Positions 14,319 through 53,228 of a DNA stretch of 64,000 nucleotides are shown one piece after another. The stretch comes from Prototheca cutis. Taxonomy: Eukaryota; Chlorophyta; Trebouxiophyceae; Chlorellales; Chlorellaceae. The notes under the pieces were generated by a model that was given only the letters and a program-made list of their open reading frames with translations, did not search any database and was not told where the DNA came from. The position numbers and the translations under genes are program-made. The first letter of the stretch is position 1; the number at the start of each line of letters is the position of its first letter. Location of the stretch: NCBI GenBank assembly GCA_002897115.2, contig BCIH01000009.1, forward strand, positions 874,415-938,414, written 5' to 3'.

Positions 14319-14357
<39 letters not shown>

Positions 14358-14375
14358 ATGTCACTCCCAAGACCG

Positions 14376-14415
<40 letters not shown>

Positions 14416-15147
14416 NNNNNNNNNNNNNNNNNNNNNNNNNNNNNNNNNNNNNNNNNNNNNNNNNNNNNNNNNNNNNNNNNNNNNNNNNNNNNNNNNNNNN
14501 NNNNNNNNNNNNNNNCCCCCCCCCACCCACACACACACACCTCAAGTAAAGATCGGGTGAGCGCGAGGACACGGGCCGTGGCAGGCGCCGTCAATGCCGC
14601 CGCCAGGCCAACCGCATCGGCCAGTACCACGTTTGACCCCGGCTCGCGCGCCAGACCCTCGAGCGCCGCCGCCGCCAGGCTCAGCGCGTCGACAGGCGTC
14701 CCTTGCTGGCCGCGCCGCCCGCCCAGCCTCAGGAGCTCCAGAGCCAGCGCAGGGCTGCTGCTGGCAAATCGGCACAGCATGCTCAGCACGGCCGCCAGCT
14801 CGGCCGCTGCGGCACGGATGTTGTTTGGGTCCCGCCCCCCTCCTGCCTGGCGACTGCCCTGGGTCAAAAGCCGCAATGCTGTACCAGCACGCTCCACAAG
14901 GATGAGCAAGGGCGCGGCTTCCGGCATGGACACACTCCAAGCGATGAGCGACAGGTCATGGTGCCGAGGGTGACAAGATGCCACCGTGGATGCTTCGTGA
15001 CCCTGCTCGGTGTCCAGTGCCCAGGACCCTGATGCCGCCGCCTCTCCACGCCGAGCTTGGCCATCCTCTTCCTCCTCAGGCAACGGCAGCACTTCGCCCA
15101 TGATGCCCTTTATGTCGTCGTATTGCAATGGGTGAGTACATACGCAT

Positions 15148-25620: not shown

Positions 25621-26061
25621 NNNNNNNNNNNNNNNNNNNNNNNNNNNNNNNNNNNNNNNNNNNNNNNNNNNNNNNNNNNNNNNNNNNNNNNNNNNNNNNN
25701 NNNNNNNNNNNNNNNNNNNNNNNNNNNNNNNNNNNNNNNNNNNNNNNNNNNNNNNNNNNNNNNNNNNNNNNNNNNNNNNNNNNNNNNNNNNNNNNNNNNN
25801 NNNNNNNNNNNNNNNNNNNNCCCCCCCCCCCCCCCCCCCCTTCCTCTTACACACACACAGGGCCTGGTACAGCTGTTCTCGGAGGCTGGGCTGGACCTGC
25901 CGCTCAAGGCCGTAGGTAATTGCCGGTACAGTCTGGGGGGCAGCAGGGTCGGCGTGCGCCTTGTGCGAGGGCGGCTCATGGTACGGTCGGGGGCCGGCCT
26001 CATCCCGCTGATGGACTGGCTGGAGAAGCAGCCCTTGCCCAGGGGAGGCGGTGAAAACTAG
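23544..26061 (+). CDS. Coiled-coil protein with C-terminal GAR (GAS2-related) domain
   Basis: Exons seen: 23544-23714, 23826-23984, about 24198-25374, and a last exon 25861-26061. Exons 1-3 join in phase 0. Exon 3 ends in phase 1 (donor GTAGGT) while the last exon needs phase 0. At least one exon is therefore probably lost in the poly-C and N gap between them. Residues about 58-210 are heptad-rich, Leu/Ala/Glu/Arg coiled coil. A long low-complexity linker follows, ending near PKYGQDPMFRELKAAYNA. The last exon reads YSLGGSRVGVRLVRGRLMVR and then GLIPLMDWLEK, the pattern of the zinc-binding, microtubule-associated GAR domain. The inferred role is a microtubule or axonemal linker. That the two ends belong to one gene is inferred from strand and proximity. 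Confidence 0.55.
25586..25840. repeat. Poly-C flanking an assembly gap
   Basis: 35 C before (25586-25620) and 20 C after (25821-25840) a run of 200 N (25621-25820), in an intron of the GAR-domain gene. Confidence 0.95.
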
Positions 26062-26897: not shown

Positions 26898-29800
26898 ATG
26901 GGAGGATCTGATGACAAGGCCAGAGCTGGGGTTGAGAGTGCCGCCGTCGCCTTAACCAAGGCCGTGGACTCGGCGGATGACACCATGGTCGTTGCTCACC
27001 TGACGACCGTGGCGCCCGAGTTCCTCAAGCCCGGCCTGAAGGGGTTTTATGGATGCCCGGCAAAGGACTGGAAGGCCGAACCAGACCGGCCAGCCCCCCA
27101 GACCGGCCCTGGACCCTCTCCATCAACCACGTCGCCAGCTGTCTCCGAGGGCCAGAGCCTGTCCGCGGGCCTTGCGGAGGGCCCGGAGCAGTGCGCTGGG
27201 GAGTCCACGGCCATGAGTCCCAAGTCCGAGTCGGAGCCGGGGCAGCCTGGCCCCAGCCCGGGCCCAGGACCCTTGCAGCATCCCCAGGAGGGTCCTCCAA
27301 AGCCGGCGGGGCTGGCGCAGCTGCTGGGAATCCTGGACCGCCTGTCGCAGCTGGATGCAGAAGGCTGGTTCCAGGCCCCCGTCACCGACACGCAGGCACC
27401 AAACTACTCCTCCATCATCCGGCATCCCATGTGCATCTCCGTCATGCGCGAGAAGGCCGCTGCGGGGTCCTACGCGTCGTGGCCCGACTTTGTACGAGAC
27501 TTTGAGCTGCTGTGCAGTAACGCCATGCGCTACAACCAAAAGCGCTCGCGGATACACAAGCAGGTGAGCTGAGGTGATGATGGGGGGGGATGGGAATTTT
27601 TGTGGCATTTTTTTTGTTTTGGGGGCGGCGCGTTGGGAGAGAGCGGAGGGACCCCGCGCAGCAGTGATGATCCCACGTTGCCGCCTGAGCTTCGGTGGTG
27701 ACAGCCAATATTGAAGCCCCACCACAATCCCGCAGGCGTTGGTGATGCTGCGAGCCGGCAAGAAATTGCTGGTGGAGACGGAACTGGAGGGGCGCAAGGC
27801 GATTGCCGCCATTGCAGCCGCCACCGGCGACCGGCGCGCAGGCCCGGCGCCGGGGACGCAGCTGCCGTCCACGCCCGCAGCCAGCGGCCTTCCCACACGT
27901 GCGTGCAGGGTGTGATTCATGAGAATGCTTTTTGTTTGCCCTTTTTTAAAGGGGTGGGGAACGTGAATGGAGCGGGTGTTGGTGCCGCTGCTTCTGGGTG
28001 TGTAGGGGATTGGCTGGCGGCCGAGACGCCCACAGCCAGCCAGCCGGCCTACTGGGATGATTGGCAGCTCATTCAATGACGCTCCTCACCTTGTCTTGCA
28101 ACACGCCCCTTCTCTTCTTGCAGCGGCGGGAGCGGGGTCCACCCCGGTGACGCCCGAGCCGGAGGCCAGCGGGACACCCGTGGCTGTCGATGAGAAGGGC
28201 CCTCGCCAGGTTAACAGTGGCTACCTGATGCCCTGGGCCGAGGCCGCGGCGCCGCTCAGCGACTATGGCTCCACGGAAATCGACGCGAGCGAGGACGACC
28301 AGAATGCCGGACCGAGTTCGGTGGCGGCACTGGGGCCGACGACTGCAGCGCTGTTTGTCCCGTGGGCGGCAGACGCCGGCGCTGCTGAGTACTATGGTCG
28401 GGACTCTGGTTCTGCCGCCGCAGCTGCCTTGGAGCTGGGCCCCGGGTGGCGCTCTGCGTGCCAGGGGGCTGAGTGGCGCGCCCGGTGGCTGGAGCTGCGC
28501 CTGCGGGAGCTGCGGCGACAGGCAGCCCGGTACCGCGCGGCCCTGGCCAGCCTGGAGGCTAAAGGCGGTGGGCTTGGTGACCGCGTGATGCAGCCAAACG
28601 GCCGCGATATTACGAATGGCAGCGGTGCTGCAGCCAAGACGAGGTGCACGCTGCCCGGCTGGGCGCACTCGCTGCTTGTTGCCAAAGGTGGCGGGGCCGA
28701 GCCGCGCGGGCGCGAGCCGCTGCGGGAGCCGGCTGCGAGAGCACCTGGCGGGCTGGATTTTAAGGACACTGACGGGAACGGCACCGCCGTGGCGCCCGAA
28801 ACCGCTGGCTGCATGACCAGCGCCACCCTTTCGAGAAGCAACGACTTCAGCCACAATGATGATCGCTTGTCGCCAAGCTTTGCGGCGCGAGCCTTTGCGG
28901 CACTGGAACTCCTGGAGCTCCGGGTAGCGGCCCTGCGAGAATCCCTCGGCGGTGTTGGTCCCGGGCGTGCTGGCGGTGGCGACGGCGGTACCCCGACAGA
29001 CTCGCCCGCAGGCGGACGGCCGCTGCGGAGCGTGGAGCGGCGCCACGCGGCGCTGAACGCGCTCAATGGCCCGCTGCGTGCACTGCGAGCGACGGGTGTC
29101 ACGCTGTCGCGGTCGGCGAGTCTCCGGGTCGGCGGCAGCGGCGGCGGGTTTGGTCCTGCGCTCCCTGTTCGCCGCAGCGCCAGCCTGTCCCTGCACCGTG
29201 GTGGTATCGGGGCGCAGGGTGCTGGTGGCGGAGGGAGGGCAGGCGACGACAATGCGCTGGCCACCCCGCGCTCGCGCAATGGTGGTGCTGGCTTGCTGGC
29301 GCGGTCGGGTTCATCTCTCACTGCTGCCGCAGCAGGTGCCAGCGCGACCGCCAACACACCCAACACCACCTCGATTGAGGGCGGGGTGACGCCGCGGGCG
29401 GGATCGGTGGGGCTCAAGCGCCGCCGGGCAGCGCTCGAGTACGCGATCGGCGAGATGCTGACGCCCGGCGCGCTGGGAACCCCCAAGTTTGTCGAGCGCG
29501 TGCAGGTCAAGACGATCGACACGCCGGGAGTCAGGCTCATCCCTGCCGCGGAACTCAAGCGTCGCGCGGTCGAGATTGCTGCCATGAGTGCCAGGCTCGA
29601 CCAGAAGGGGGGCACGACGACCGGTGGGGGTGGTGGCGCCGGCAAAAAAAGGGGCTCAAGTGCAAGCGGAAGTCGACGTGGCACCGAGACTGCGACGACG
29701 CGGTCGCGATCGCCCTCCCCATCCTCTTCGGAGGAAGACACAAGCGATGAGGCTTTTGCTGCACGGCACGCTCCGCTGGAGGCCGCGGAGCGCGCGCGGT

Positions 29801-31167
29801 ACGAGGCGCACGCTGGTGGTGCGACTGGCGAGCGCAAGCCGGGGCGCAACAAGAAGCTGAGCAAGGATGGGCGCAGCAAGTCGGCGCCCTCCCTCCGTGT
29901 GCCCGGGAGTGGTGGACGGAGTGGTGGGTCCAGGTCCCGGCCCACGTCGCCTGTTGCCGACTGTGCCGGTGATGGAATGACAGTGGGAGGGCCAGGGCCT
30001 GCGGTAGCAGCGGCGACCGAGTCGGGCACTGCAGCGGTGGAAAGTGAGGTGGCGGCAATTGCGGAGAGCGAGGCGGCGGGGGGCCTCGTCCCGGAGGCAC
30101 CGGTGGTGGGTGCGGTCACCCAGGCGGTCGATGCAGTCATGACCGCCGACGGCCCAGTCGCCGTGGCCAAGCCTTCGAGCAAGAAGCGTGCCGCTCCCTC
30201 CAGCACTGCTGCTGTCGCCGCCGACCGCGGGACAAGCAGGAAGAGCAAGAAGCAAAAGGAGGCAACTCCCCCACCGGCGGCCGTGTTGGGGCAGCAGGCG
30301 TCTGGGGTAACGACCCCGGGGACAACCCCCGCGGCCGCGCCTGGGACGCCGGCTGCGGCCCCTAACGACACCGCCGTCGAGGTTTCCACGAGCGCCAAGA
30401 CCTCGCCCGCCATGAAGCCCGCGCCGAGCCTGCCGGCGGCGACGACGGCACAGCAGCAGCAGGTGCTCATGGCTGCGGCAGCCATGGCCGCGGGCGCTGC
30501 CGGCGGCAAGACCTCGCCCGGCCCACTGTCGGCGGTGGGAGCAGCGTCACCGCTGGCACTGGTTCCACCCGGCTCGGCCGCGGCAGCGGCCGCTGCAGGA
30601 CAGCTCATGGCCGCACACATGGCACAGATTGCGGCGGCCGCGGTGGCGGCGCAGGCGGCAGTCAAGGACGGGCCGGAAGCCGTCGCCGAGGCAGCGATGA
30701 AGGCCCTTCAACAGCAGCAACAGTCGCGGCCAGCGAGCGCGGGTGGCACACGCGATAGTAATGCGGCTGATAGCAATGCGACCCCGGGCAGCACGGCGCC
30801 CACAGCAGCGGCCTATGGGTCGGCGCAGGCGCTGCTCGCGCAGCTGTTTGCGCGCAACGCCGCGGCAGCAGCGGCGTCGGGGGGGTCTGCACCCTCGCCC
30901 GTGGCGGCGGCCATGGCGGCCGCCGCGGCGGCGGCCGCGGCGGCGGCGCAGCAAGCCATGGCGGCACGAACTGCCGGCGGCGGCGGTTCTGCCCCTGCGG
31001 GCTCCGCGTCATCGATGCCCGCTGCGCTGCAGGCCATCATCCCGCCGCTCACGCCCGCCAACGCCGTGCAGAAAGCAACGGCACCTGGACCGCCGTCGGC
31101 CTCGGCCAGCCCCGTGAAGGCTGGCACTGGTAGTGAAGTGCCGCCTGGTGGTGATGAAGAGCGGTAG
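26898..31167 (+). CDS. Bromodomain and PEHE-domain chromatin protein (KANSL1/MSL1-like)
   Basis: Three exons, 26898-27563, 27736-27898 and 28124-31167, join in phases 0 and 1 to 1290 residues. Residues about 150-235 form a bromodomain: DAEGWFQAPV, NYSSIIRHPM, then CSNAMRYNQ with the acetyl-lysine-binding Asn. A charged helix (WLELRLRELRRQAARYRAAL) follows near residue 410. Around residues 745-860 the order VERVQVKTIDTP, then Gly/Ser linker, then EEDTSDEAFAARHAPLEAAE matches the PEHE domain of KANSL1/MSL1, which contacts the MOF acetyltransferase. The C-terminal third is Ala/Gln/Pro low complexity with poly-Ala. Inferred role: a nuclear scaffold linking acetyl-lysine reading to a MYST acetyltransferase. 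The bromodomain is firm; PEHE is a recalled-pattern match. Confidence 0.75.
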
Positions 31168-35502: not shown

Positions 35503-36311
35503 GGCTGCCGCGCCGGGGTGGGGATGCACTGCTGCAGCAGGAGGATTATGAAAAGGGAGGGGGAAGAGAGTCGGCGGGAGATGGAAGACACGACCGTGCT
35601 TGGTCAAGGCAAGCGCAAGTGCTCCATGGCAGTGCAGGTTGCACCTCCGTAAGGAAAGTATGGCATTCCTGCATCACAGAGATGCATCTGCTGCATGCCG
35701 GCATCAGGGCAGACAGCAATCTGCCTTGCTCTCCCTCTAGGGTGCCCCGTGGTTCTCATGACTAACCCCCTGTCTATGTTTTTTGCCATTCCACCCACCT
35801 GACCCACCCAAAGTCGACCCTTCGCGCCAGCACACACGCGCCCGAACTGCATTCGCACCTGCTTTCAATCCGCCGAAACTCCGGGGCCTAACAACAGACG
35901 AAATGACCGCGCGCAGTCGGCAGATGCTGGCTAAGGTCATGCCAGGCGGAATGACGCCCCGAACCACGACTGGCCAGCCCTGTGCATCCGGCCTTACTCT
36001 CGCCGAGCAGCGCAGCACCGGTTTATTGGGCTCAGAAAAAAATACTGAGACACCTATACATTGTGCCACGATTATGTGGGAACATGGGCGTTGCACCAAT
36101 GACGGCCGATCGGAATTGATCCGAGTCACCGGCACTCCACCAAAGGGGCCCTGCAAAAGGTCCCCCGCCACATCACCCCAGCCCACCTGCCATGGGAAGC
36201 TCATAGCACCGTCAATAAACGCGGCGATTTGCCGCATGTGCACTCCGCCCAACGCAGCATGTACTATTTGAAGGATGTGCATTGCCATGGGGCCTCCTTG
36301 ATGGGGCACAC
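35503..36311. other. Divergent spacer with one unassigned open frame
   Basis: Shared upstream region of the Nudix gene (-) and the KDM5-like gene (+). A plus-strand frame at 35783-36271 (162 codons, with a helical-looking stretch TTDEMTARSRQMLAKVMPGG) is open, but the opposite strand is open too. It is more likely chance or 5' leader than a gene. Confidence 0.4.
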
Positions 36312-39282
36312 ATGAGCGGCAGCCAGCCCAGCGGCGGGCTGGGCCTGGCGCCAGTCCCAGTGTTCCACCCCAGCCAGGAGGAGTGGGCGGATCCCCTCGG
36401 CTACATCTCCCGCACCGTGAGGTCCGGGACAGAGCCATGGACCGGCCTGGCGAAGATCGTGCCCCCCGGAGTCTGGGCCCATGGGCCTGCCATCGAGCCT
36501 GCCAGGATGAACCTGGGCGTCCAGGTGCAGTCCCCCGGCCTCCTTCTGCTCAAGCAGACCTCCTCAGTGGCCAGGGTGTGGCGGGATGACTATGCGGACT
36601 TCTGCCTGGCCCTTGGGCAAGCACCGGGCAGGGACCCCGTGGTGGCCGGGCAGGTGGTGGACCTCTTCCAGCTCTACACCGCCGTCACGGCGGTCGGTGG
36701 ATGGACGCGGATGGAGATGGAGAGGATCTGGGCAGGCCTAGCGGCGCGGTTGGAGGTGCGGAGGGGCCGCCCGGGAGGCAGATGAGGGCCTGGGCACTGG
36801 GGGAGTCTGGCACTGTACTGGCCCGCTGTGCTCTGCATGCCCGCGCTAAACCCTGAATTTATGGTGTCATGGCAGATTGGAAACACACGAGGAAGTGCTG
36901 CCCTGGGCCTGCGGTCTGCATATCGCAAGCGGCTGCTGGCGTACGAGCACCATGCTCTCCATGGGCACAGGCCGGGGGCCCCACGCCCAGGTGATCTCAG
37001 GAGGGTCTGGTCCGCATGACATGCGGCATGCTGCACCCATGCATGGTTCATGGCTGAGGGAATGCATCGGGGGAGACTGGACACTCTGTATCCGGGTGGC
37101 GACCACGATGCCGAGCCCCGGGCCCTGCCCACCCTTTAGCAGAGTCCGATGAGGAGGACGACGGCTCCGATGAAGATGGCATGCCTGGCCAAACAACACC
37201 ATCGGGTCAGGACGCGGATGCGACCTCTGCAGCAGAGGTTCTGGGAGCTCTGCTCGCGGTCTCCCCGCTGGCACCTGCAGGCGTCTCCGCCCCGGCCACC
37301 CTGATCTCAGCATGGGTGAGGCTCTCCCGTGATGCGTGCGTGCGTGGTCACGCAGAAATGGTATTTTGGGGGGAATTGGGCCCGCCGCATGAACTCCGAG
37401 GTGCCCAAACTCCAGACTCGGCCCCTCCGCCCTCGCAGGACGGCGAGCTCGACGACCAGGACGGCCACGAGGACAGCTCCTCAGGGGGCACGGTCCCGAG
37501 CAACATCTTCACGATGGTGTGCGAAGCGTGCCAAGGCGGTCATTCCGAGGATAAAATTATCCTCTGTGATCGCTGCGACAAGGGCTGGCACATGTTCTGC
37601 CTGCAGCCGGCGCTCGAGGCCGTGCCGGTCGGCGACTGGATCTGCCCGGTCTGCATAGAACGAGGTGCGGTGCAGTGGAATAGCTGAAGCGTTTTGTTTG
37701 GACTTTTCCGTATCAAAGGAATTCGCCTTTTGTGCGGCTTGTGTAGATTTGCTTTTGTTTTGCCTTGACTCTTTGTTGGGGGGGTGTCCCGACGTGGCAT
37801 CGCGCGGCGGGAGGATGGTTTTTGGAGGGATGTCGCGCTATTGGGACTAGGGGCTTGTTCCCTTTGCCCCACGGCACCCCCTCGAGTCCTGAACATTCGA
37901 CCCACCACAAGAGCACACACATCATGACAATGCATTCTTTCCCTGCATCTGTGACGCAGAGGTATCGCAGGGCTTGTACACGACATCCAAGACAATCACG
38001 CTGGAGGCCTTCAACGCCGCTGCCAGGAAGTTTGACCGGCAGTGGTTTTCCAGCAAGGCCGGCAAGGTATTGTGGCTGCTTGGCGTGTTTGTGATGCAGC
38101 GCATGTTTTTTTGCAGATGTTTGCCCAGGCTGTTGTCTGCACCCCAAGCCCACGCGGGAGATTGCGTGGTGGCAGGCCGGATGGCCAGCGTCTTCCCCCT
38201 CCCGCATCAACCCCGCCAATACCCAACACCGCCCCACGCGCTCACAAACCAAATGACCTCGCACAGTCATCGGATCCAGACAGCATCGAAGACGCGTTCT
38301 GGCACATGGTGCAGACACGGGCCGACCGTGCACGGGTACTGCATGGTACTGCGAGCGCCGAGGCCTCCGGGGAGTGGAGCCTGCTGGCTGGCATGACGGC
38401 ATCCTCCCCAGGCTGCACCTCCCTCCTGGACCGCTTGCAAGCTCCTTTGCCTGGTTAGTGCTTGCGCAGTGGTGGGGGCGAGGGCCCCTTCTGGGAAACA
38501 TGTATGTATGTCTGGGTGCCACCAGCCGGCCCAAGAACCCACGTTGTAGGCTACCCCCAACCCTCAAAATGCCCTCACCTCCCCCACTTCAACAGATGCG
38601 CTGTTGCCACGGTTGGAGGTGGACATGGCATTTAGCTGCGGCCCTTGGACCTGCCAGCACGACCTGCTGTACACGGCGACGCTCCTTCGCGAGGGTGCGC
38701 CCCGCGTGTGGTATGGCGTGCCGGCGACAGGGTCAAATGCCTTTGAATCTGCATTAACGATGCTGGCGCCGGCGGCGGCCCTGGCGCTGCCGTGTCTGTC
38801 GCTCAAAGGCCTCTGCATGCCGCCACCCGCGGCCCTTGCCGCACAGGACGTTCCCTTGACCCGATGCATCCAGGTTCGTTGGGGTAGGTTATAATCTTTT
38901 CTTTCCTTCTTTTTGCAGGGGGAGAAGGGGAAGGGCTTTGTTAGGTGCAAGATTGATTGCAAGTGTTTGTTGGAGCGACGGGTGCTGGGACACAACCCCT
39001 GGGGGAAATAAGCAAAAACAAAGGACCTCCCAAAAGACCCCACACCAAAAAAGCACAAACGACACTGTCACATGCAGTACCCTGGGGAGCTAGTGGTCTC
39101 CTTTCCCGGTGCCACGACGGCCTGGGTGTCCTGCGGGACGTCTGTGGCCGAGCGTGCGGTGTTGGCGCCGCCCAACGTGCTGCGCATGTCCACGCTGTGC
39201 ACGCTGCGCTGCAGGGCGCTGCGTCAACCGCCGGCCTGGGACCATGCTTTGCTGTCCCTGCTGGTGAGTGTATCTTTTGCCC

Positions 39283-39375
<93 letters not shown>

Positions 39376-42300
39376 TGTGTGTGTATGTGTGCGCGTGCGT
39401 GCGTGCGAGCATGTGTGGTGGGCTCCCTTGGTGAAAGGGGATTGTCTTCGAAACGCCACCACTCATGTGCCCCATCAAACGAACCAAATGAGGCAGTGGG
39501 CCCGAGGGAATGGCAATGGCGGCGCTGCCACCATTTCCCTCCCTGTCGAGACACGACGGTGGCTGGCAAAGGACCTGGCGGCTCGGGGGGACGCCGAGCT
39601 GGATCTGCGGCTGAGCGCATGGGCGGGCGGCATGCACCGTGCCCGCGCCGCGCCCGAGCTGCTGGAAACGCCGCACCGCTGCGCGCTGTGTGCGCTGCCC
39701 TGCAGCCTGTCGGCCGTGGCCTGCGGCACTTGCAAGCACGGCCGGTTAGTGTGTGCCACACACTCAGCCGCGCTGTGCGACTGCCCTCCAGCCAAACGGA
39801 CGCTGGTCTACTCGATGACGGTGCAAGAACTGCGGGCAGCTTCCGACCAGCTTCTTCTTGATGATCGTACTACAACTACCGATGCTGACGAGGACGACGA
39901 CCTGGCGGGTTTGGCCGGGGCCATGGTGACCATGCTGTCTGCCGGTGGTGCACGGGCACAGGATGCCACGACTCGAGATTCTCCTCGCAGGGGCGACGGA
40001 GAAGCCGCTGCTGCTGCCACGCCCGGCACAGTTGGCAGGGAGGATCGGCCTGGCACGATATCAACAGCCATCACAAGCAGCGCCAGCAACAACGCCATTG
40101 TTCTTGTGGAAATCACAACCGCAGAATTGAGAGAAGAGCTACTGGCCGCACTCTCAGAGGCGCACGCGCTGTGGCATGAGCGGTGTGAGGCGACGCTGGC
40201 CAAGGGTGGCCGTCTCGCCTCGGATTTGTCCGAGCTCCTTGAAGAAGCCGAGCAGTACACCTGGGGTGGCGGTGCGTGGAGTGATTGATGGATGGATGGA
40301 TCGATTGTTTTGTGTGGGTCGGGGGTTGGGTGTTGGGAGAGGGAAGGCATGTTTGCAAGCCCACCTTGCTCAAGTCAGCACAGCAGCGTCGAGTCTTTCC
40401 AAAGGCGCAAATGACAGAAACATCCTGAACCCNCCGACCCCCCCCCCCCCCNCAAACAACAGTGGATGACACCAAGGGCGTGGCGGCCTTGGTATGCCGA
40501 CTGCGCAAGGCACAGGATTTCCTGGGCCGCGTCGATGCCGCGCTTTCCAGCCGCCCCGACGCCGAGGAGCTGGACGTGCTGCTGGCAGTGGACCCCGCAC
40601 CCATGGGCGATGTGCCAGGACTGGATCAAGTAAGAGAGCTGGCGAACACTGCCAGCGACTGGCGGAGCCGGGCGCAGGCAGCTTTGGGTTCGAAATCGGC
40701 GATGAGCATTGCAGAGTTTGAGACTCTGTTGTCCGATGCTGCAACCGTAAACGTGCGCATGCCGGAGACGCGACTGATTCGGGAACGGCTGGCCGCGGCG
40801 CGGCGCCTGGGCGAGTCCATCCACGCCGCGCTGCCTGCTGCGGTGGCGATGACGACCACGGGCGATGGTACGCAACCACCACCGGGACGGAAGAGAAAGG
40901 GAGAACCTGTGCCACTACCGGACGCCGAAGCGCTGCTAGCACTGCGCTCCGCAGCACAAGCCTTGCGCTGCGAGGTTCCACATGCGGACACCCTGTACGA
41001 AGCCGTCGACGCAATAGAAGCCTGGCAGGCTCGGGCCAAAGAACTCCGCGCCGTGCGGACCCCTCTCCTCGACCTGCGGCGGTTGGTGGAAAGCGCGGAA
41101 CGCCTGCCGGCCGTGGTACCCGAGCGCGCCGACCTGGAGGCCGTGCTGACCCGGGTCCAAGCGTGGGTCGCCGCCATGCGGTCGCTGGTGTCCAGCCACG
41201 CGCCGTTGAAACGCCTTCGAGACGCGTTACACTCGGGCCTGCGCCTGCCCGTGGAACTGCCCGAGGTGGAGGACCTGCGCGCCGCCATTCGCGCGAGGGA
41301 GTGGGAAGAGAGCGCGCGCAGGGCCCTGTCGGGTCGGAGCACGCTCGGCCTGCTGCGCGATGTCGCCGGCCAGGCCGCAGAAATTGGTGGCTCCGACACC
41401 GACCTCGCCACCAGGCTCAGGTTGGTCGGTCTGACTGGTTTCATTTGATTCAATTATGGTCATTACATGTGTTTTGAACTCGGCCGGTGGATTCTTTTTC
41501 TGGACGGATGAATGGGTGTCGGGGTCTGCGTCCACAGGTCAGTATGGCGACTGGCTGTGGTGGGGGAGACAAACAGCCAACCGAGCCCTCCAACCAACGA
41601 TACACGGGCAGGGATAAAATCGTGCAAGGGGAGGCGTGGGACGTGAGGGCTGCTGAGTTTCTTGGACGTGCTGAAACCGCAAGAGCTGACGTGCAGCGGC
41701 GGCCAGCGTTGCAGGAGCTGCGGGAGATTGCTGCATCTGGCACTGCAGCGGGTGTGCGGCTGGAGCGGCTCAGCATGGTGACCCATGCTCTGGCCGCCGC
41801 CGATCGCTGGATGGAGTGCGCGCTGGCTTGCTTGGCTCATAGTGAGGAGGAGGAGGAGGAGGAGGAGGAGGACGACGGCATTGGAGCGGACTCGGGAGTG
41901 CATCCGGACGAGATGCAACCAGACACGGCCGGGGAGTGCACAGGAGAGTCGCAGGACAGCAGTGCGGGCGGAGAAAACGGTGCGGCTATCGCTTGCGCCC
42001 AGTCCACTGTCCACGCCATGGTTATGAACGACAAGAACAACAACAGCCTTATCGTCACATCAGAGGAACAAGAATGGCAAGAGGCGCCATGCGAAGACAA
42101 CACCACCACCCCAGCAACGCACGTCAAGCTAGAGGAGGAGGAGGAGGAGGACTTGAACAGGATGGACATCGACGCCGCTGGTCCACCATTATCATCCGCC
42201 CCAGGGCCAACATCAACATCACATGACGTCATCTCCCCAGCTGGACCTGCTGCTCATGCACCACGCCCAGATGGGCACCGCCGAGCCGGGCGCCGTGGTG

Positions 42301-43724
42301 CCCGCGCCGAGGTGCCAGAGCCGACAACGCCACCAGCAGAAGCAAGCGACTCTTCTGAGCTGCCAACGATCGGTCTCTTGACGGCACTGCTGGAAGAGTA
42401 CGAGGAGTCCCTGCTCATCCAGGCGCCACAGGCTCAGGCTCTGGCACGCCTCAAGCGGCGGGCAGAGGCCTGGCTGGAGCTGGCCGCGCCCGTGCTCTCG
42501 GCAGCAGCTGTTCTAGACCAAGCGCGTTACCCAGATCTGGTACGACTGATCGAAATTGGCAAGAAGGTGCCGGTGCACATGCCGGAGTTTGACCGTCTGT
42601 GGTCGCAGACGCGGGCTCTGGCCTGGGACCAGCGCGTGACGGCCTGGAAAGCAAGGGTTGCAGTGGTGGGGCCAACGGCGCCGGCGCAGGATGAATGCAA
42701 CAACAGCTGCATTAAGGGCGATGGGATTCCGAGCATCGCCATGCATCAGTCGACACCAGAGGCCGACGTGCCCACACGACGGCGTGATGATGACGGTGAC
42801 AGGTACGGAATGCTGATCGCATTTGGCTGGGACGCGGCAGCGCCACAAGCATGGGCTTGACACTGTCTGGGCAAACTCCTGAGACTGCGAGAGTCTTTGA
42901 AGCAGACGTGGCGACGACATGGCCATCCGTTTTAGTACTATGCAACAATCCTCCCAACCCTGCAGCAGCAGCTCTGGTATGACGCTGGAGGCTGGGACGA
43001 GGCTGGTGGAAGAGGGAAAGCAACTGCCCGTCAATGCCAGCCTGCTCTCTTGGCTGCAAGGGTGCGTCTGTTGTGTGGAGATCGTGGTGGGGGTAGAGAA
43101 CGATCTGGAACTCTAAGAATACCTGCATGCATCGGACGGGCGACTCCTGTGCACGGCCATGGAGTTGACCTGATCCTCATTGGTGCGTGCGTGCGTGCCA
43201 TCAGGAACCTGTTCCTTCACTACCACGACACCTCACGCAGGCACGTGGATGCCGGGGAGCGATGGAAGGTAGAGGCTGCTGGCATTGCCGCGGCGGCACA
43301 AGCGGCTGCTGTTGCTGCAGCTGCGGCGGCAACACTGCCGGCAGTCACCATCACATCATCGGCGGTCGCGGATGCAGCAGTCGCGGACAGAGAAGAAGGA
43401 GAAGCTGGCGAGAAACCGCAGGCTGAGTGGACCCAAGTCGATGCCCAAGTAGTCCGGGACCTGATCAAGGCCGGCCAGCATTTGGTGCTGAAACAGGCGC
43501 TGCTGTCAGAGTTGGAGGCAATAGTGGACGAAACAGATGCATGGGAGGCGCAGGTGCGGCGCCTGCAGGACACTACCGGTGCCGATCGGCCGCCACTTTC
43601 GAAGTTCGTCGAGCTGGCTGAGGCCGCCGAGCGTTCTGTCATCAAGCCCCCCCTCCAGTTTTTCGTGACCTCGTCCCTTACACTCACGGGTATCCCTTTT
43701 TTGTGGTAGTAGGGATGTGTGTGT

Positions 43725-43783
<59 letters not shown>

Positions 43784-46700
43784 TGGAATTGGGTAGCGGT
43801 GTGTGAGGGAGCTTGGAGTAACCCTTTACCGATGCGCTGCTCATCATCATGGACTGTTCCTTGGGGAAAATAAAAATAAAAAAAGCCCAACCCCCAACAG
43901 AGGAGTGGCTGGATAAGGCGCGACGGGCTGTGGCCAAGCGCAACTCGGGGTTGGCCCTGCAGGATGGGCTGCGCATCATGATTGACACTGTGGACGCCGC
44001 AGTCGGCCAGTTTGAGCGCCGTCTGGAGGTGGGTCTTATTTGTCTTAGGGTGGTTCTGGTTGTCGTTGGGGTTAGTCGTGACTGAAGGAAGAGGTTGGAG
44101 GGTGAGCCTGGGGATGGTGGTGTCTGGGGCATGTGGTCAAGGAGGACCGGGTGGACCCGGGGCCATGCCAGGAGAGGCCGTTTCAAAAAAACACTTTCTG
44201 GCCTGTCAGGGTACTTGATATGCTGACTAGACAGCGTCCATTCGCGGGCCAACCACGCAGATGGAGAGGAAGCTGATGGCTGCGAGGGATGCCGGGGCGA
44301 CTGGAGTCCCAGCGGGCACTGGTGATGCCCAGGACGGCTCCAAAACAGGACACCAGGACGACATGGCGTCAGACAACCAGCTGTATTGCCTGTGCCAGCA
44401 AAAGTACAGTGACCGCGCGTCGACCATGATTTCTTGTGATGCCTGCGGCGACTGGTATCACATGAAGTGTGTGGGCATGAGTCCCTCGGCGGCCAGGGCC
44501 ATCGCGGTGTACACCTGTCCCTTTTGCCGCGTGCTGCGTGGCGGGGGCCCGGACGGACTGAAGTCACTGCTTGGCAAACTGACCCGCACGCGGCGGCCGC
44601 CGCGGCTGGTGCTGCTGACACTCCTTGAAAAGGTTGCTCTTGGGCTTCTTCTGTTTATAGGGTGGCGTGGGGCGGGCTTGGCCCAGCATGGCCATTGTGA
44701 ACGACCCCGAATGCCTGTGGTACAGCTGCCCCAGCGATGGCACCCCTGCTCCCCTGTAGGCCCGGAAACTCCCTATCCTGCTGGCCAAGGAAGAAAGCGC
44801 GCTGGAGGAGCTGTTGGTCAAGTTTGACCGCTGGATGGTAAGTTGCTTGATGGGTGGGTCGTCGGTTCCTTTTTGGCTGCATGTATAGAAAGAAAGGGGG
44901 ACAAAGGTAACCGGAAGAGCCAGGTGTGAGCGTCAGAGCTGGCAACCCCCACCCACACTTCCCTGGGGATATTGCCACGATACACAATCCCCCCCAAGAA
45001 ACTCTTTCAACTACAGATGGCAACGAGCCGGGCGGTGGAGGTGCATGCGGCCTCGCGCTTGGCAGACACTGCATCGACCGCCAGGGTGCACCCCTTGTCA
45101 GAGGGTATCCTGTACCAACTCTGCAAATCAGGTGCGGCAAAGGGACCCCACCGCCATTGCATCCATGAACGCATACATTACACACATCCATTCACGTGCA
45201 TGTTCCTCCTTTATTCCATCGCAAAACGACATCAGCTTGGGCCATGGAGGTGGATGCCAGTGAAGCGGCGGCGAGCATCATGATGCTGCTTCAGGGTGAC
45301 CACTGGCGTTCCAAGGTGGATGCCCTCATGAACACCAAGCAAGGTGTGGGTGTGTGTGTGTGTGTGTGTGTCGCGGGGTGTGGGGATGACTTGGTTTTGG
45401 CTTGGAGTGAAACATTGGGGCCAAAGTCTGGGATGTGTTTTGGTGTATGCGGGATTGCCCTTGCTGTCTCAAGATGCCATTCACTAAAGAACTGAACCCT
45501 GCTTGCAAAGCAATCCACCCTACACCTGCAGCAACGCGACCCAGCTTCCAGACAGCCTCCCAGTTGCTGGCCGAGGCCGAGGCCTGCTGCATTGTGCCCG
45601 AGTCTGATGCCAGGGGTCAAGCCCTGGCCGCGGCCGTTGCCATCTGCCGCGAGTGGCGACTGTGCACGCACGGTGTGCTGGAGTCACTGCAGCCCCACGC
45701 ATCGCCCGTTGGGGGTTTTGAAGCACTAGCCGCTGCCGCGGCGAGCTTGGTGCGGGCAGAGGCCGAGCTGCCCTTTGAAATGGCCGCTGAAGCCGCAAGT
45801 CTGGCAGAGCACAGCAAGCTCTTCTGTCTCTGCCGGATGCCCTACGATGACCAGCGCCCGATGCTCGGCTGCGACTTTTGCACGGGCTGGTACCACTATG
45901 AATGCGTTGGGTTGAGCATCCCCGGCAGTGACGGTAAAGGTGGCAATGGTGGCGGTGAGAAGACTGCCGTCGCTGCCGGCGATGGAGTGGCAGATGGCGA
46001 CACGGCATCGGTCACCACCACCACCACCACCACTGTTACTACTCCTCCCAAACCCCCGCATCATCATCCCGAGCAACCATCGGCAACAGCAAGGCCGGCG
46101 CTGCAGCCGGCTCCCGAGGGCGATTTTCGGTGCCCCGTGTGCGCGCTGCGGGAGGGAGTGGAGTACCCCGCTTTCCACAGCCTGCCCCCGGCATCTGTGG
46201 ACGTCCTGCGACGCATGGCGGTCAGCATGGACTGCCAGCGGCCAGTGCAACCAGTGATTGGGCGCCCTGAAGAAACCGAAACTCAAGGTCGGGAAGGTGA
46301 TACCTTATTGCCCGACGCCGGGGTTTCAGACGAGCCCATGGGGGCGGCGGCGGCGGCAGCACCATCTGCTGATGCATCCTCTGGCGCGAGAGTTCCAGAT
46401 GATGCAGCAGCGCCCTCTGATGACGCTGTTCGTGACCCGACCGACGATGCCAGTGGGCGGGGGAGGGCGCGTCTTGAGGCTGCTGCTGCTGCAGGAGGCC
46501 TGCCCGAGTGTGGGGCCCTCAACGATCCGCGACCATCCAGTGGAGGCATACCAGAATTGACCCTGGGTCAGAATGACAGCACCGGGTCTGGACAGAACGC
46601 CACAGCTCTTTCTTTCACAGTTGCCAGGTCGGCCCCAGAGGGAGAACACCACCACCAGCCAGATGAACCACCTGCCAAGCGAACGAGATGCTGCTTAGAC

Positions 46701-46793
46701 AAGCCTGCTGCACCCGGCGAGCTTGAGACTGGCGTCCAAGGCGGCACGGCCACCATCAGTGCAGCAGCAGCACCGCCAGCCCCAGGAGAGTGA
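36312..46793 (+). CDS. KDM5: KDM5/JARID1-like protein with degenerate JmjC domain
   Basis: Nineteen exons: 36312-36755, 36876-36990, 37143-37315, 37439-37664, 37960-38066, 38117-38453, 38596-38873, 39078-39263, 39497-40271, 40463-41420, 41543-42802, 42966-43061, 43205-43689, 43901-44028, 44261-44632, 44760-44837, 45017-45131, 45236-45343, 45532-46793. Total 2500 residues. Domains in order: JmjN (PVFHPSQEEWADPLGYI), ARID (residues ~110-180), PHD1 (~271-318), JmjC (~468-600), C5HC2 zinc finger (~684-735), PLU-1-type helical repeats, PHD2 (~1899-1949) and a PHD3 with a long insert (~2178 on). KDM5 enzymes demethylate H3K4. Here the Fe-binding HxE is Thr486-Cys-Gln488, the distal His aligns with Thr574, and the 2-oxoglutarate Lys of GEPKTWYG is Arg (GAPRVWYG). 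Starts of exons 11 and 13 are the least certain. Confidence 0.9.
39284..39371. repeat. (TG)n microsatellite in KDM5-like intron 8
   Basis: About 44 TG units, then GCGCGTG-rich degenerate repeats to about 39410. Confidence 0.95.
43725..43781 (+). repeat. Poly-G tract (57 G) in KDM5-like intron
   Basis: An uninterrupted run of 57 G between exons 13 and 14, the longest homopolymer in the window. Confidence 0.95.
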
Positions 46794-47431
46794 CACCGAG
46801 GGCACAGGAAGGGCGACAGTACTACACAAGCTGTGGATATCCATCCATCCAGCAATAAACTTCCCGCATCCTTGGGCGAGGCTGTGAACCTATTTTTCAA
46901 CATTCGTGATGACGACAGCGGCCTCCGCAGGGGGTCCCTTTGCCCCTCTTTATCCCCATTTACCCTTGGGCCTGAATAGAACGGCACCGTTCTGGCTCAT
47001 CAATACAGGGCCTCCTAAAAGTGGTGTGCCAAACTTAATCATCTGATGGTCAGGCTTGACAGAAGTGTGAAGGGGCCAAGCATGATCTCATGAAATGGAG
47101 ATACCACGGGAGTGGCAGTATGTGATTTTCAGCGGCATCACCGGCGCTCACACGTGCAGTCTGACCGGTTCTCTCTTTCACTCCGCTCCCTGCACAAGCG
47201 CAGTGCAGGGATGCCGGTTCCGCTTCACCAAACGCTCTTTCAGAACGTAAGCAAGGTTTTGTGCATGCAAGCCGGAATGAGACACCAATTCAGAAAAGAA
47301 TGGTCATCATGATGCAACCAAAAACAGAGAGCCCCTGCACTGCACTGCTTCCTGGACATCTCTCTTAGAACACGGCCAATTGATCAATGCTCGTTGGCCA
47401 TTCTCCATGGCCAACAGGCTGCTCACATTCT
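46794..47431. other. Convergent 3' spacer, no gene seen
   Basis: Lies between the stop codons of the KDM5-like gene (+) and UMP kinase (-). It contains the poly(A) signal at 46854. No other feature was seen. Confidence 0.5.
46854..46859 (+). terminator. AATAAA poly(A) signal of the KDM5-like gene
   Basis: A canonical hexamer 61 bases after the TGA. Confidence 0.5.
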
Positions 47432-49146: not shown

Positions 49147-52100
49147 ATGACGGACGACGAGTCCGTGCCGCTGCACGGCAAGGCCGTCTACGATGCCGAC
49201 CTCTACGGCGGTGCGGACGCGCGGAATGGCTACGCCACGAGCATTCCCGTCGGCGATGAGGACGAACAGGATGAGCGGGAACGCCTTGTCGCCAGGCAAG
49301 AACGCGTGCTGTGCGGGACAAGGCGGGGAGGGAGGTGTCGCAAGCGCCGGCCTTGTCGACGATGATGGGTTGGGTGCCCCGCTGCCTGTGGCCTCCGGAC
49401 TGCGTACACCCCCAATGGCTCACGCGGATCCCCTCATGCCCTCTTACGTGCAGTAAACTGGCGTCTTACACTGCTCCCAAGGCCTTGCTGGACGAGGTAC
49501 CCATGGCCGAGGACGGTGATCAGGTGCGCAGTGTTGTAGCCCGGTGTGGTTGGGTGATTGGTCTGTGCGTGTTATGACAGGGTTTAATCAAAGATGAAAC
49601 TTGATGTCGATGTGGATGGTGGTGGTAGCCAGTGGCAGGGAGGGAGGTGTTGGTGGCCCGTCACTTCCTACACCCAAATCGCCGTTTCCCTTTGCCTCAC
49701 CACCCCTGCCCCTACCCACCCACGAACACACACGAACACACACACACCAGGCGGGGAGCTTTGGCGCGTCACGTCGGATCGTGGATCGGGAGAGCGAGTA
49801 CAGCCGCCGACGGCTGAACCGCGCGTTGTCGCCTTCACGGAATGACGCATTTCAGATGGGCGACCGCACGCCTGACGCCCGAGTGAGGACGTATGCAGAC
49901 GTGATGCGTGAGGCGCAGCTTGCGCGCGAGCGCGACAACACGCTGCGCAACATCGAGCTGAAACGCCGTGCCGAAGAAGAAGCGGCAGTGGCGGCTGATG
50001 CCACGGCGCCCACGCGCGCGTCGGCGGGCTCTGCGCCGGCGGCTGAGCCTCCGGGCAAGCGCAGCCGCTGGGACAACTCGAGCAGCAAGGCGAACGATTG
50101 GGAGGCGGAGGCCTCGGCCACGCCTGCGGCGCCGGTGGGCTCGTGGGATGCCACCCCGGCGCATGGCGCCGGGTCGCGGTGGGATGCCGCCGGCGGCGAG
50201 ACGCCCACGGGCGCCACGAGCCGCCGCAACCGCTGGGACGCTACCCCTGCCGACGCCGCCGCTGCGGCGAGTGCGGGGGGCAAGGGGAGCCGGTGGGACG
50301 CGACGCCGGCAGTGGTTGGAGCCACTCCTGCCTACGGCGCCACGCCCGCCTACGGCGCCACGCCTCTGGGCGGTGCGGGCTTGGAGACACCCGCATACGG
50401 TGCTGCCGGTGCCGCAGCTCCCGGTTCTGCCGGCCAGGTGCCCATGACCCCGGAACTGTACACGGCGCTGAAGATTGAGCGGGAGACCGACGCCAGGAAC
50501 AGGCCGTTGTCAGACGAGGACCTGGACGCGATGCTTCCCGGGGCTGATGAGGGGTACAAGATTTTGGAAGAACCACCCGGGTATGAGCCGATCCGCACGC
50601 CCGCCCGCAAGCTGATGTCGACACCGGCTCCCTATGGCGGCACGCCGCTCTACGGTCTCCCTGAGGAGGACCGGGGTCAAGCGTTTGACGTTCCTCTATC
50701 TGTCGAGGGCTTACCCGACCTGAAGCCCGAGGACGCCCAGTATTTCGGCGCGTTGCTCAAGGATGTGGACGAGGCCGCACTCAGCGTGGAGGAAGCGAAG
50801 GAGCGCAAGATCATGCGCATGCTGCTCAAGATCAAGAACGGCACGCCTCCGCAGCGCAAGTCGGCGCTGCGGCATTTGACCGATCGCGCCCGCGACTATG
50901 GGGCGGGCCCGTTGTTCAACCAGGTTTTGCCGCTCCTCATGTCGCCGACGCTTGAAGATCAGGAACGCCATCTCCTGGTCAAGGTCATCGACCGCATCCT
51001 GTTCAAGCTGGACGATTTGGTGCGACCGTATGTGCATAAAATCCTGGTGGTCATCGAGCCGCTGCTGATCGACGAGGACTACTATGCGCGCGTGGAAGGC
51101 CGCGAGATTATTGCAAACCTCGCCAAGGCGGCCGGCCTGGCGTCGATGATTGCGGCCATGCGTCCCGACATAGACAATGTGGATGAGTACGTCCGCAACA
51201 CTACCGCTCGCGCCTTTTCCGTCGTGGCATCCGCGCTGGGCATTCCCACGCTACTGCCGTTCCTGCGTGCTGTGGCGGGGTCGAAGAAATCCTGGCAGGC
51301 AAGACACACGGGCGTCAAGATTGTGCAGCAGATTGCCATCCTCATGGGTTGCGCCGTGCTGCCCCATCTACGTTCGTTAGTGGACATCGTCAAGGCCGGA
51401 CTGTCTGACGAAAACCAAAAGGTGAAGACGATCACTGCGCTGACTGTGTCCGCGCTGGCGGAGGCGGCGGCACCGTACGGCATCGAATCGTTTGACGACG
51501 TCCTGGAGCCGCTGTGGAAGGGCATTCGCCTGCTTCGTGGCAAGGTGCTGGCCGCGTATCTCAAGGCCATCGGCTTCATCATCCCGCTGATGGACGCGAG
51601 CTATGCCAACTACTACACGCGGGAGGTAATGGTGGTGCTGCTGCGCGAGTTTGCGACGCCCGACGAGGAGATGAAGAAGATTGTGCTTCGCGTGGTCAAG
51701 CAGTGCGTCGGGACCGAAGGCGTGGAGGCAGAGTATGTCCGTACGGAAGTCTTACCAGAGTTTTTCAAGCACTTTTGGGTGCGGCGCATGGCGCTGGACC
51801 GCCGCAACTACCGCGTGCTCGTCGAGACGACGGTGGCCATTGCCGCAAAGGTCGGGTGCTCCGAGGTCGTGGGGCGGATAGTTGAGGATTTGAAGGACGA
51901 GTCGGAGCCCTACCGGAAAATGGTCGCCGAAACCGTCGACAAGGTCGTCTCCACGCTAGGCGCGGGGGACATTAGCCCTGCGCTGGAGGAGCAGCTCATG
52001 GACGGTGTCCTGTTTGCCTTTCAGGAACAGGTGGCGGATGAATCGCCTGTGGTGCTGAATGCCTTTGGGTCGGTCATCGCCGCGCTGGGTTCGCGTGCGG

Positions 52101-53171
52101 CGCCGTACCTGCCGCAGATCGCGGGCGTGATCAAGTGGCGGCTGAACAACAAGTCGGCCCGGATCCGGCAACAGGCTGCTGATTTGGTCGGGCGGGTCGC
52201 TCCCGTTGCGGCACGCTGCGGCCAGGAAGCGTTATTAGGCCATCTCGGCGTGGTCCTGTTTGAGAATTTGGGAGAGGAGTACCCGGACGTGCTGGGATCG
52301 GTGCTGGGAGCGCTCAAGGCCATCGTCGCGGTGGTGGGCGCGCCGCGGATGACGCCGCCCGTCAAGGACCTCCTGCCGCGCCTGACGCCCATCATGAAGA
52401 ACCGACACGAGCGCGTCCAGGAGAACTGCATCGACCTGGTCGGTCGGATCGCCGACCGCGGCGCGGAGTTTGTCCCCGCACGCGAATGGATGCGCATCTG
52501 CTTCGAGCTGCTCGACATGCTTCGGGCGTTCAAAAAGGCAATCCGCCGCGCGGCGGTGAACACGTTTGGCTACATTGCCAAGGCCATCGGGCCGCAGGAT
52601 GTCCTGGTGACGCTGCTGAACAACCTGAAAGTCCAGGAGCGCCAGTCCCGCGTGTGCACCACGGTTGCCATTGCCATCGTCGCGGAGACGTGCGCGCCGT
52701 TCACCGTCCTCCCCGCGCTGATGAACGAGTACCGCGTGCCGGAGCTCAACGTCCAGAACGGCGTGCTCAAGGCCCTCAGCTTTTTGTTCGAGTACATTGG
52801 CGAGATGGGCAAGGACTACCTGTATGCAGTGACGCCGCTGTTGACGGATGCGCTGCAGGATCGAGACCTCGTGCACCGCCAGACGGCTGCCTTTGTCGTC
52901 CAGCATGCCGCTCTAGGTGTGGCGGGCCTGGGCTGCGAAGACGCCGTTCTGCACCTGCTCAACAACGTCTGGCCCAATCTGTTTGAAGCGTCGCCGCACA
53001 TCATCCAAGCCGTCACGGGTGCGATCGACGCCTGCCGCGTCGCCCTCGGCCCCGCAGTGATGTTGAATTACTTGCTCCAGGTGATCAGTAGTCGGGTTCT
53101 TCTTTGCTTGTTTCTGGGGTGCATACACATGTGTGAGCGTGGATAGGTATGTGTCCCCCCGACATGATGAC

Positions 53172-53228
<57 letters not shown>

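What the first reader, a model, noticed from the sequence alone, without database searches (positions are those of the whole stretch)
38596..39263. KDM5-like protein that has lost all catalytic residues of its JmjC domain
The alignment to the KDM5 JmjC core is gap-free over 24 residues ending in WYG. The family's W-H-x-E is W-T-C-Q here (Thr486, Gln488). The 2-oxoglutarate Lys in GEPKTWYG is Arg, and the Asn of INYLHW is Thr. In the next exon the FPRSYHAGFN block is FPGATTAWVS, so the distal His is also gone. JmjN, ARID, three PHDs, C5HC2 and the PLU-1 region are all kept and the frame is open for 2500 codons. This points to a selected pseudo-demethylase that reads or scaffolds rather than demethylates.
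Basis: partly seen in the sequence, partly recalled or inferred. Interest (0 to 1): 0.82.

Follow-up and report, generated by a model that had tools for sequence, protein, structure and literature searches.

The report
Alga's dead KDM5 demethylase, still kept
A colourless green alga and its relatives carry a histone-demethylase gene whose chemical centre has been lost while its chromatin-reading parts stay conserved, so it probably now reads or scaffolds chromatin instead of erasing a mark; similar cases are known in yeast and animals.

Summary
Window 36312-46793 (+) encodes one 19-exon, 2,453-aa KDM5/JARID1 protein of the plant JMJ17 type: JmjN, ARID, three PHDs, JmjC, C5HC2, PLU-1. Its JmjC core aligns without gaps to human KDM5A. 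The Fe(II) triad H-x-E...H reads T-x-Q...T, and the 2-oxoglutarate Lys and Asn read R and T. Misassembly or a hidden exon is unlikely: the Auxenochlorella protothecoides orthologue (47% identical) is dead too, with other letters (S-x-H...A). Of 121 relatives readable at the triad, 112 are intact; five of the nine exceptions form one supported clade with the window protein, sister to the intact Myrmecia enzyme, also when JmjC is left out of the tree. In that clade JmjC evolves about 6.6 times faster, relative to C5HC2 plus PLU-1, than in intact relatives (95% 4.8-9.3), while PHD1 and PHD3 stay conserved. It is the only PLU-1 gene found in the genome; a catalytic JMJ14-like gene remains. Best reading: an anciently inactivated KDM5 kept as an H3K4 reader/scaffold. 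Reading and scaffolding are inferred. S. pombe Msc1 and animal JARID2 are precedents; this appears to be a separate green-algal origin.

The parts
36312..46793 (+). KDM5/JARID1 (JMJ17-type) gene, 19 exons, 2,453 aa, stop at 46791-46793
   Evidence: Spliced model, phases consistent, one stop; GT-AG; Pfam architecture
36357..36464 (+). JmjN
   Evidence: PF02375
36585..36947 (+). ARID, split by intron 1
   Evidence: PF01388 aa 92-172; one search finds its first part
37520..37654 (+). PHD1 (KDM5-type; 78% identical to Auxenochlorella)
   Evidence: PF00628 aa 272-316
38596..38873 (+). exon 7: first half of JmjC. Thr436 (38649-38651) and Gln438 (38655-38657) at the H and E places; Thr446 at the Asn place; Arg454 (38703-38705) at the Lys place
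39078..39263 (+). exon 8: second half of JmjC. Thr524 (39117-39119) at the distal His place
39680..39838 (+). C5HC2 zinc finger
   Evidence: PF02928
40609..42650 (+). PLU-1 region, matching stretches in the genome search (40609-40800, 41071-41385, 42339-42650)
   Evidence: PF08429, 171.5 bits for the whole protein; places
44378..44530 (+). PHD2, with the Y-Y-M-W pattern of H3K4me3-binding PHDs (pattern recalled)
   Evidence: best PDB matches BPTF and PHF2, PHF8 also listed; alignment, 54% identical to Auxenochlorella
45816..46146 (+). PHD3, with F-Y-M-W pattern and a long insert before the last zinc ligands
   Evidence: best PDB matches BPTF, then PHF8 and PHF2; 82% identical to Auxenochlorella over the 33-residue core

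Best explanation
This is the orthologue of the plant/animal H3K4 demethylase KDM5 (JMJ17 type). It lost iron binding in an ancestor shared with Auxenochlorella and several unnamed algae, and has been kept as a non-catalytic chromatin protein. Most likely mechanism: ARID (DNA), PHD1 (H3 tail) and the C-terminal PHD2/PHD3 (cage residues of H3K4me3 readers) hold it on chromatin; the JmjC/C5HC2/PLU-1 body, freed from catalysis, serves as a structural platform for partner proteins. Shown by sequence: loss of the triad, one clade, relaxed JmjC, conserved PHD1/PHD3, intact frame. Inferred: no activity, H3K4me3 reading, scaffolding. H3K4 demethylation would be left to the intact JMJ14-like enzyme on contig C8.
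For: Gap-free JmjC alignment with all three Fe ligands replaced. Orthologue P0001 dead with other letters. Six dead proteins form a clade at 100/99 with JmjC and 98/97 without it (bootstrap/SH-aLRT). JmjC-to-reference rate ratio in the dead clade against intact relatives: median 6.6, 95% 4.8-9.3, seven catalytic columns left out. In six intact pairs JmjC is 68-82% identical and PLU-1 a 24-46%; in four dead pairs JmjC is at or below PLU-1 a (49/52, 42/44, 67/74, 52/61) while window/Auxenochlorella PHD1 is 78% and PHD3 82%. Within-genome control: the C8 JmjC core is 70% identical to Myrmecia's JMJ14-like one; the window JmjC is 29% identical to Myrmecia's KDM5. PHD2/PHD3 match BPTF/PHF2/PHF8. 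Dead-clade member P0008 is predicted to keep the KDM5B fold.
Against: No expression, binding or knock-out data. Decay is uneven: Auxenochlorella keeps the Lys and its own JmjC tip is slow (0.127 against 0.347 for the reference); P0008 keeps Asn and Lys; 4 of the 6 keep the distal His, two of these (P0009, P0010) being near-identical. PHD2 is only 54% identical to Auxenochlorella's; its cage is also in intact Myrmecia, so it did not arise with the loss, and is absent in intact P0011/P0013. P0006, P0008, P0009 and P0010 show no PHD1 in their predicted proteins, and P0006 and P0008 no PHD2/PHD3, so their readers are only partly seen. In a tree of JmjC+C5HC2 alone with fish JARID2 added, the dead algal proteins, Pycnococcus and JARID2 fall together (92/97) and away from Myrmecia, with the window pair beside JARID2 at 71/56; I take this for long-branch attraction (JARID2 stem 3.1, window tip 1.84), but it shows that the single-loss clade rests on trees that include PLU-1.
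Confidence: 0.8

Rival explanations
1. A decaying gene on its way to a pseudogene: catalysis went first and the rest drifts.
For: JmjC is under much weaker constraint than in intact relatives; the window has the longest JmjC tip of the dead clade (0.914).
Against: 2,453 codons over 19 exons without an inner stop, frameshift or non-GT-AG splice site; GC3 in exons 7 and 8 (75%, 84%) lies within the range of the other exons (61-86%); PHD1 78%, PHD3 82%, ARID 61% identical to Auxenochlorella; the dead state is shared by a clade that has kept the gene.
Confidence: 0.08
2. A wrong gene model or assembly error hides the real catalytic exon.
For: The assembly has single N's at 40433 and 40452 (intron 9) and long simple repeats in introns 8 and 13. 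The whole-genome JmjC search does not list this gene at all, so weak JmjC exons can be missed.
Against: Exons 7 and 8 hold the full aligned core; a motif scan of six frames of 36001-47000 for H-x-[ED]...[KR]..W[YF] gave one hit, which reads through a poly-C stretch at 40421, and none for the distal-His block; the orthologue is dead at the same places.
Confidence: 0.02
3. The JmjC still does other chemistry, or binds a metal or 2-oxoglutarate with replacement ligands.
For: The fold is probably kept in a dead relative. For S. pombe Msc1 the authors noted possible hydroxylase traits (PMC2770259).
Against: No candidate ligand set is conserved within the clade: the three places read T/Q/T (window), S/H/A, A/E/H, R/T/H, R/Q/H, R/Q/H, and JmjC as a whole drifts even with those columns left out.
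Confidence: 0.05
4. Retained only for a protein-protein role unrelated to histone reading, such as a Swr1C-like subunit; the PHD fingers are structural.
For: Msc1 is a stoichiometric Swr1 complex subunit (PMC2770259).
Against: PHD2/PHD3 keep the (recalled) cage pattern of H3K4me3 readers in the window protein and Auxenochlorella.
Confidence: 0.15

Closest known systems
S. pombe Msc1 (KDM5/JARID1-family subunit of the Swr1 complex)
   Same: JARID1 architecture (JmjN, ARID, three PHDs, Plu domain) and loss of key catalytic JmjC residues; judged probably not a demethylase (PMC2770259, passages read)
   Different: S. pombe also has Lid2, a second JARID1 member; here no second PLU-1 gene was found. 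Different kingdom; partners here unknown. No Msc1 sequence was compared
Animal JARID2
   Same: KDM5-related (JmjN, ARID, JmjC, C5HC2), catalytic residues substituted, acts in PRC2 recruitment (PMC11241480, passages read); fish JARID2 reads S-x-D...V
   Different: JARID2 lacks the PHDs (PMC11241480); the window protein keeps PHDs and PLU-1 and matches KDM5A far better than JARID2 (E 7.5e-56 against 6.8e-24). On JmjC+C5HC2 alone a tree does not separate them
S. cerevisiae Ecm5
   Same: JmjC protein that works with Snt2 and Rpd3 (PMC10841535, passages); one paper calls its demethylase activity unclear (PMC4201760, passages)
   Different: PMC10841535 also calls it a lysine demethylase; that its Fe ligands are lost is recalled, not checked here; no sequence compared
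Plant JMJ17 (rice P0024) and Myrmecia bisecta KDM5 (P0005)
   Same: KDM5 with PLU-1; Myrmecia is the sister of the dead clade
   Different: Intact H-x-E...H, Asn and Lys; loss of Arabidopsis JMJ17 raises H3K4me3 genome-wide (PMC13361950, passage read)

Membership tests
KDM5/JARID1 family (by descent) | JmjN, ARID, PHD1, JmjC, C5HC2, PLU-1, C-terminal PHDs in this order | tested here: met
   All over Pfam cut-off
KDM5/JARID1 family (by descent) | Groups with plant/algal KDM5 in a tree | tested here: met
   Inside the green KDM5 group, sister to Auxenochlorella, in the trees that include PLU-1, with and without JmjC; not resolved on JmjC+C5HC2 alone with JARID2 added
KDM5 as an active Fe(II)/2OG H3K4 demethylase | H-x-E...H iron triad | tested here: not met
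   T-x-Q...T
KDM5 as an active Fe(II)/2OG H3K4 demethylase | 2OG-site Lys and Asn (KDM5B K517, N509; numbers recalled) | tested here: not met
   Arg454 and Thr446
KDM5 as an active Fe(II)/2OG H3K4 demethylase | Demethylase activity | not testable with these tools
   No bench work
Catalytically dead KDM5-type regulators (Msc1-like) | JARID1 architecture with lost catalytic residues and an intact frame | tested here: met
Catalytically dead KDM5-type regulators (Msc1-like) | Swr1 complex subunit | not testable with these tools
   No interaction data
JARID2 | No PHD fingers (PMC11241480) | tested here: not met
   Three PHD stretches, and PLU-1, present
JARID2 | Groups with JARID2 in a tree | tested here: inconclusive
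   JmjC+C5HC2 tree puts the window pair beside fish JARID2 at 71/56, with very long branches
JARID2 | Works with PRC2 | tested here: inconclusive
   A VEFS-Box (SUZ12) search of the genome found nothing, but nothing rang in the controls either

The most novel reading that the evidence does not exclude
In one clade of green algae the sole PLU-1-type KDM5, with no PLU-1 paralogue found beside it in the one genome that could be searched, changed from an H3K4me3 eraser into an H3K4me3 reader that guards or interprets the mark: a clade-wide eraser-to-reader switch, reached by single-copy loss of the iron site and separate from Msc1 and JARID2.
Probability: 0.3. Interest if true: 0.65.

Novelty: new variant of a known kind. 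Interest (0 to 1): 0.52.

Why it matters
KDM5 proteins in animals have demethylase-independent roles that are hard to separate from catalysis. A clade that has lived without KDM5 catalysis but kept the protein is a natural separation-of-function experiment: whatever the conserved parts do there is the non-enzymatic job. It also adds what appears to be a separate green-lineage case of a KDM5 pseudo-enzyme, with erosion visible in steps (of the 6 proteins, proximal His lost in 6, Glu in 5, distal His in 2; [quoted passage not shown]

Tried and rejected
Rejected: misassembly and a hidden HxE exon; pseudogene; JARID2 orthology, on PHDs and PLU-1, the KDM5A match and the PLU-1 trees.

Led nowhere: VEFS-Box search for PRC2, no control rang; SWIRM search gave 2 places, not followed; the paper on yeast Snt2/Ecm5 (PMC3811877) is not held. 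dN/dS was not done: I had no DNA of a close orthologue (metagenome scans are capped at 0; genome contigs and viral contigs, which hold prokaryotes and viruses, were not scanned). The species of P0006, P0008, P0009 and P0010 carry no names, so placing the loss in Chlorellales is inference from Auxenochlorella alone (order). The first rate run left out the wrong columns as catalytic (off by one); one search repeats it with the right ones.

Rows dropped or chosen: of 125 proteins P0001-P0125, P0004 gave no JmjC row and P0108, P0124, P0125 were not readable at the triad, leaving 121. The trees held 22 rows picked by hand (21 of the 125 plus the window); the domain and rate work 12 rows (11 of those 21 plus the window); one search held 24. 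The Mesocestoides protein was in none of the trees. The protein searches scored only the roughly 8,000 candidates sharing most words, and one search listed 120 of 121 hits, so relatives may be missing.

Literature searches for an earlier report: (listings read; passages of PMC9029850, PMC11241480, PMC10841535, PMC4201760, PMC2770259, PMC2579438, PMC13361950; no whole paper). None that I saw describes a dead KDM5 in green algae; the library lacks most subscription papers and supplements could not be read.

Full report
What is there. I rebuilt the gene from the DNA: 19 exons at 36312-46793 (+), phases joining, 2,453 codons and one stop; all 18 introns are GT-AG. The finding's 38596-39263 is exactly exons 7 and 8. 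Pfam finds, all over cut-off, JmjN (30.8 bits), ARID (42.4), PHD (73.3, three stretches), JmjC (35.6 against 24), C5HC2 (39.8) and PLU-1 (171.5). The best solved structure is human KDM5A 5ceh, E 7.5e-56, aligned without gaps over the JmjC core; JARID2 chains come at 6.8e-24.

The catalytic site. In that alignment W-H-I-E becomes W-T-C-Q, GEPKTWYG becomes GAPRVWYG, the Asn of SINYLHW becomes Thr, and FPRAYHSGFN becomes FPGATTAWVS. In my numbering: Thr436, Gln438, Thr446, Arg454, Thr524 (residue check). The YGAD...GSGFP stretch upstream is missing too, here and in Auxenochlorella. An inactive enzyme is what the known chemistry of Fe(II)/2-oxoglutarate oxygenases predicts; it was not measured.

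The organism. The genome is 19.9 Mb in 23 contigs. No chlorophyll a/b-binding protein was found, in a search that rang in 1 of 14 controls, Synechococcus. The closest KDM5 relative found is from Auxenochlorella protothecoides (order Chlorellales), and the C8 JMJ14-like gene is 58% identical over 405 residues to a Prototheca wickerhamii protein. A Prototheca-like colourless alga is the likely host; this is inference.

Relatives. The A. protothecoides orthologue (47% identity over 93% of the query region) is also dead, with different letters: W-S-A-H for W-H-x-E, Ser for Asn, Ala for the distal His; its Lys is kept. Myrmecia bisecta, of the same class Trebouxiophyceae, is intact. Of 124 relatives with a JmjC row, 121 were readable at the triad and 112 intact. 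The nine exceptions are P0001 (S/H/A), P0006 (A/E/H), P0008 (R/T/H), P0009 and P0010 (R/Q/H), Pycnococcus P0016 (K/E/T), a Mesocestoides tapeworm protein P0115 (Q/E/H) and two fish JARID2 (S/D/V).

One loss or many. In trees of 22 chosen rows that include PLU-1, the window protein, P0001, P0006, P0008, P0009 and P0010 form one clade, 100/99 with JmjC and 98/97 without it, sister to Myrmecia (99/96 and 99/98). On the JmjC-free tree, dead/intact needs two changes, one for this clade and one for Pycnococcus. The simplest history is loss of the proximal His in the clade's ancestor, then drift: Glu is gone in 5 of 6, distal His in 2 of 6. Several losses within the clade cannot be excluded. Against this: a tree of JmjC+C5HC2 alone, with fish JARID2 added, does not keep the clade beside Myrmecia. 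It gathers the dead algal proteins, Pycnococcus and JARID2 (92/97) and sets the window pair beside JARID2 at 71/56. JARID2's stem is 3.1 changes per column and the window tip 1.84, so I read it as attraction of relaxed domains; JARID2 has no PHDs and, in the precomputed Pfam list of the two fish proteins, no PLU-1.

Constraint. In six intact pairs the JmjC core is 68-82% identical against 24-46% for PLU-1 a; in four dead pairs it is 49, 42, 67 and 52% against 52, 44, 74 and 61%. For window/Auxenochlorella, PHD1 is 78%, PHD3 82%, JmjN 62%, ARID 61%, but PHD2 only 54%. With branch lengths fitted on a fixed tree of 12 rows, JmjC without the catalytic columns has 3.34 changes per column in the dead clade against 2.43 for C5HC2+PLU-1; in intact relatives 1.01 against 4.79. 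The ratio of ratios is 6.6 (95% 4.8-9.3, 100 column resamplings); Pycnococcus alone gives 3.4 (2.0-5.3). Against a simple picture: the Auxenochlorella tip alone is slow in JmjC (0.127 against 0.347). A within-genome control argues against a general speed-up of JmjC domains: the same genome's C8 JmjC core is 70% identical to Myrmecia's JMJ14-like protein, against 29% for the window JmjC and Myrmecia KDM5.

What else the genome has. JmjC matches lie at seven loci outside the window (eight matches; the window gene itself is not listed, so weak ones can be missed). C8 is JMJ14-like (JmjN, JmjC, part of C5HC2; best structure JMJ14) with W-H-V-E and SYHSGFN, and groups with a P. wickerhamii protein and with Myrmecia and Coccomyxa ones (100/100); C4 is JMJ13-like by its best structure, with W-H-V-E; C7 reads W-H-K-E. 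PLU-1 matches are found only in the window gene (3 of 3 places), C5HC2 only there and at C8 (2 of 2). So the alga retains an apparent H3K4 demethylase but no catalytic PLU-1 KDM5 was found.

Mechanism. PHD2 and PHD3 match best the readers BPTF, PHF2 and PHF8, with the Y/F-Y-M-W residues that I recall as the H3K4me3 cage; the same pattern stands in Auxenochlorella, P0009 and P0010. PHD2's cage is also in intact Myrmecia and lacking in intact P0011/P0013, so it is not a product of the loss. AlphaFold2 on P0008, a dead relative of 874 aa (mean pLDDT 79.6), matches KDM5B structures best (6rbi, E 3.4e-26, TM 0.76 on the target): the fold is probably kept, though an alignment of 22 mostly intact relatives favours that answer. 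The window protein itself was not folded, since its spliced sequence is not a straight reading of the DNA. I therefore favour an H3K4-state reader and scaffold. Steps shown: triad lost, frame and PHD1/PHD3 kept. Steps inferred: no activity, H3K4me3 binding, partner proteins.

Known or new. The closest precedent is S. pombe Msc1, with JARID1 architecture, missing catalytic residues and a place in the Swr1 complex (PMC2770259, passages). JARID2 is the animal case (PMC11241480, passages). A survey of plant JmjC genes, whose green algae were Ostreococcus and Volvox, reports the KDM5 sites as conserved (PMC9029850, passages). In the searches listed under Tried and rejected I saw no report of a dead KDM5 in green algae. 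This is therefore a new, apparently separate variant of a known kind.

Noticed in passing
P0016 (Pycnococcus provasolii KDM5): A second, separate green-algal KDM5 with a broken site: K-x-E and Thr for the distal His, with 2OG Lys kept; its JmjC is also relatively fast
   Followed up: partly
P0115 and P0125 (Mesocestoides corti): A tapeworm KDM5-type protein with Q-x-E, Asn to Thr and Lys to Arg but distal His kept (P0125 readable only at Lys and distal His), while two other flatworm KDM5s (P0098, P0111) have an intact triad
   Followed up: no
window 49598-53146 (+): Long open frame with SF3b1 domain and HEAT repeats: likely splicing factor SF3B1, downstream neighbour
   Followed up: no
window 28006-31167 (+): Long open frame with a sub-threshold PEHE match (24 bits, cut-off 34), a domain of MSL1/KANSL-type acetylation complexes (complex names recalled)
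   Followed up: no
window 39285-39370, 43725-43781, 14319-14415, 53175-53228: Long simple repeats: (GT)n in intron 8, a 57-base G run in intron 13, C runs beside the assembly gaps at 14416-14515 and 25621-25820, and a 54-base C run at 53175
   Followed up: no
whole genome G000: No chlorophyll a/b-binding protein match, which fits a colourless, Prototheca-like alga
   Followed up: partly
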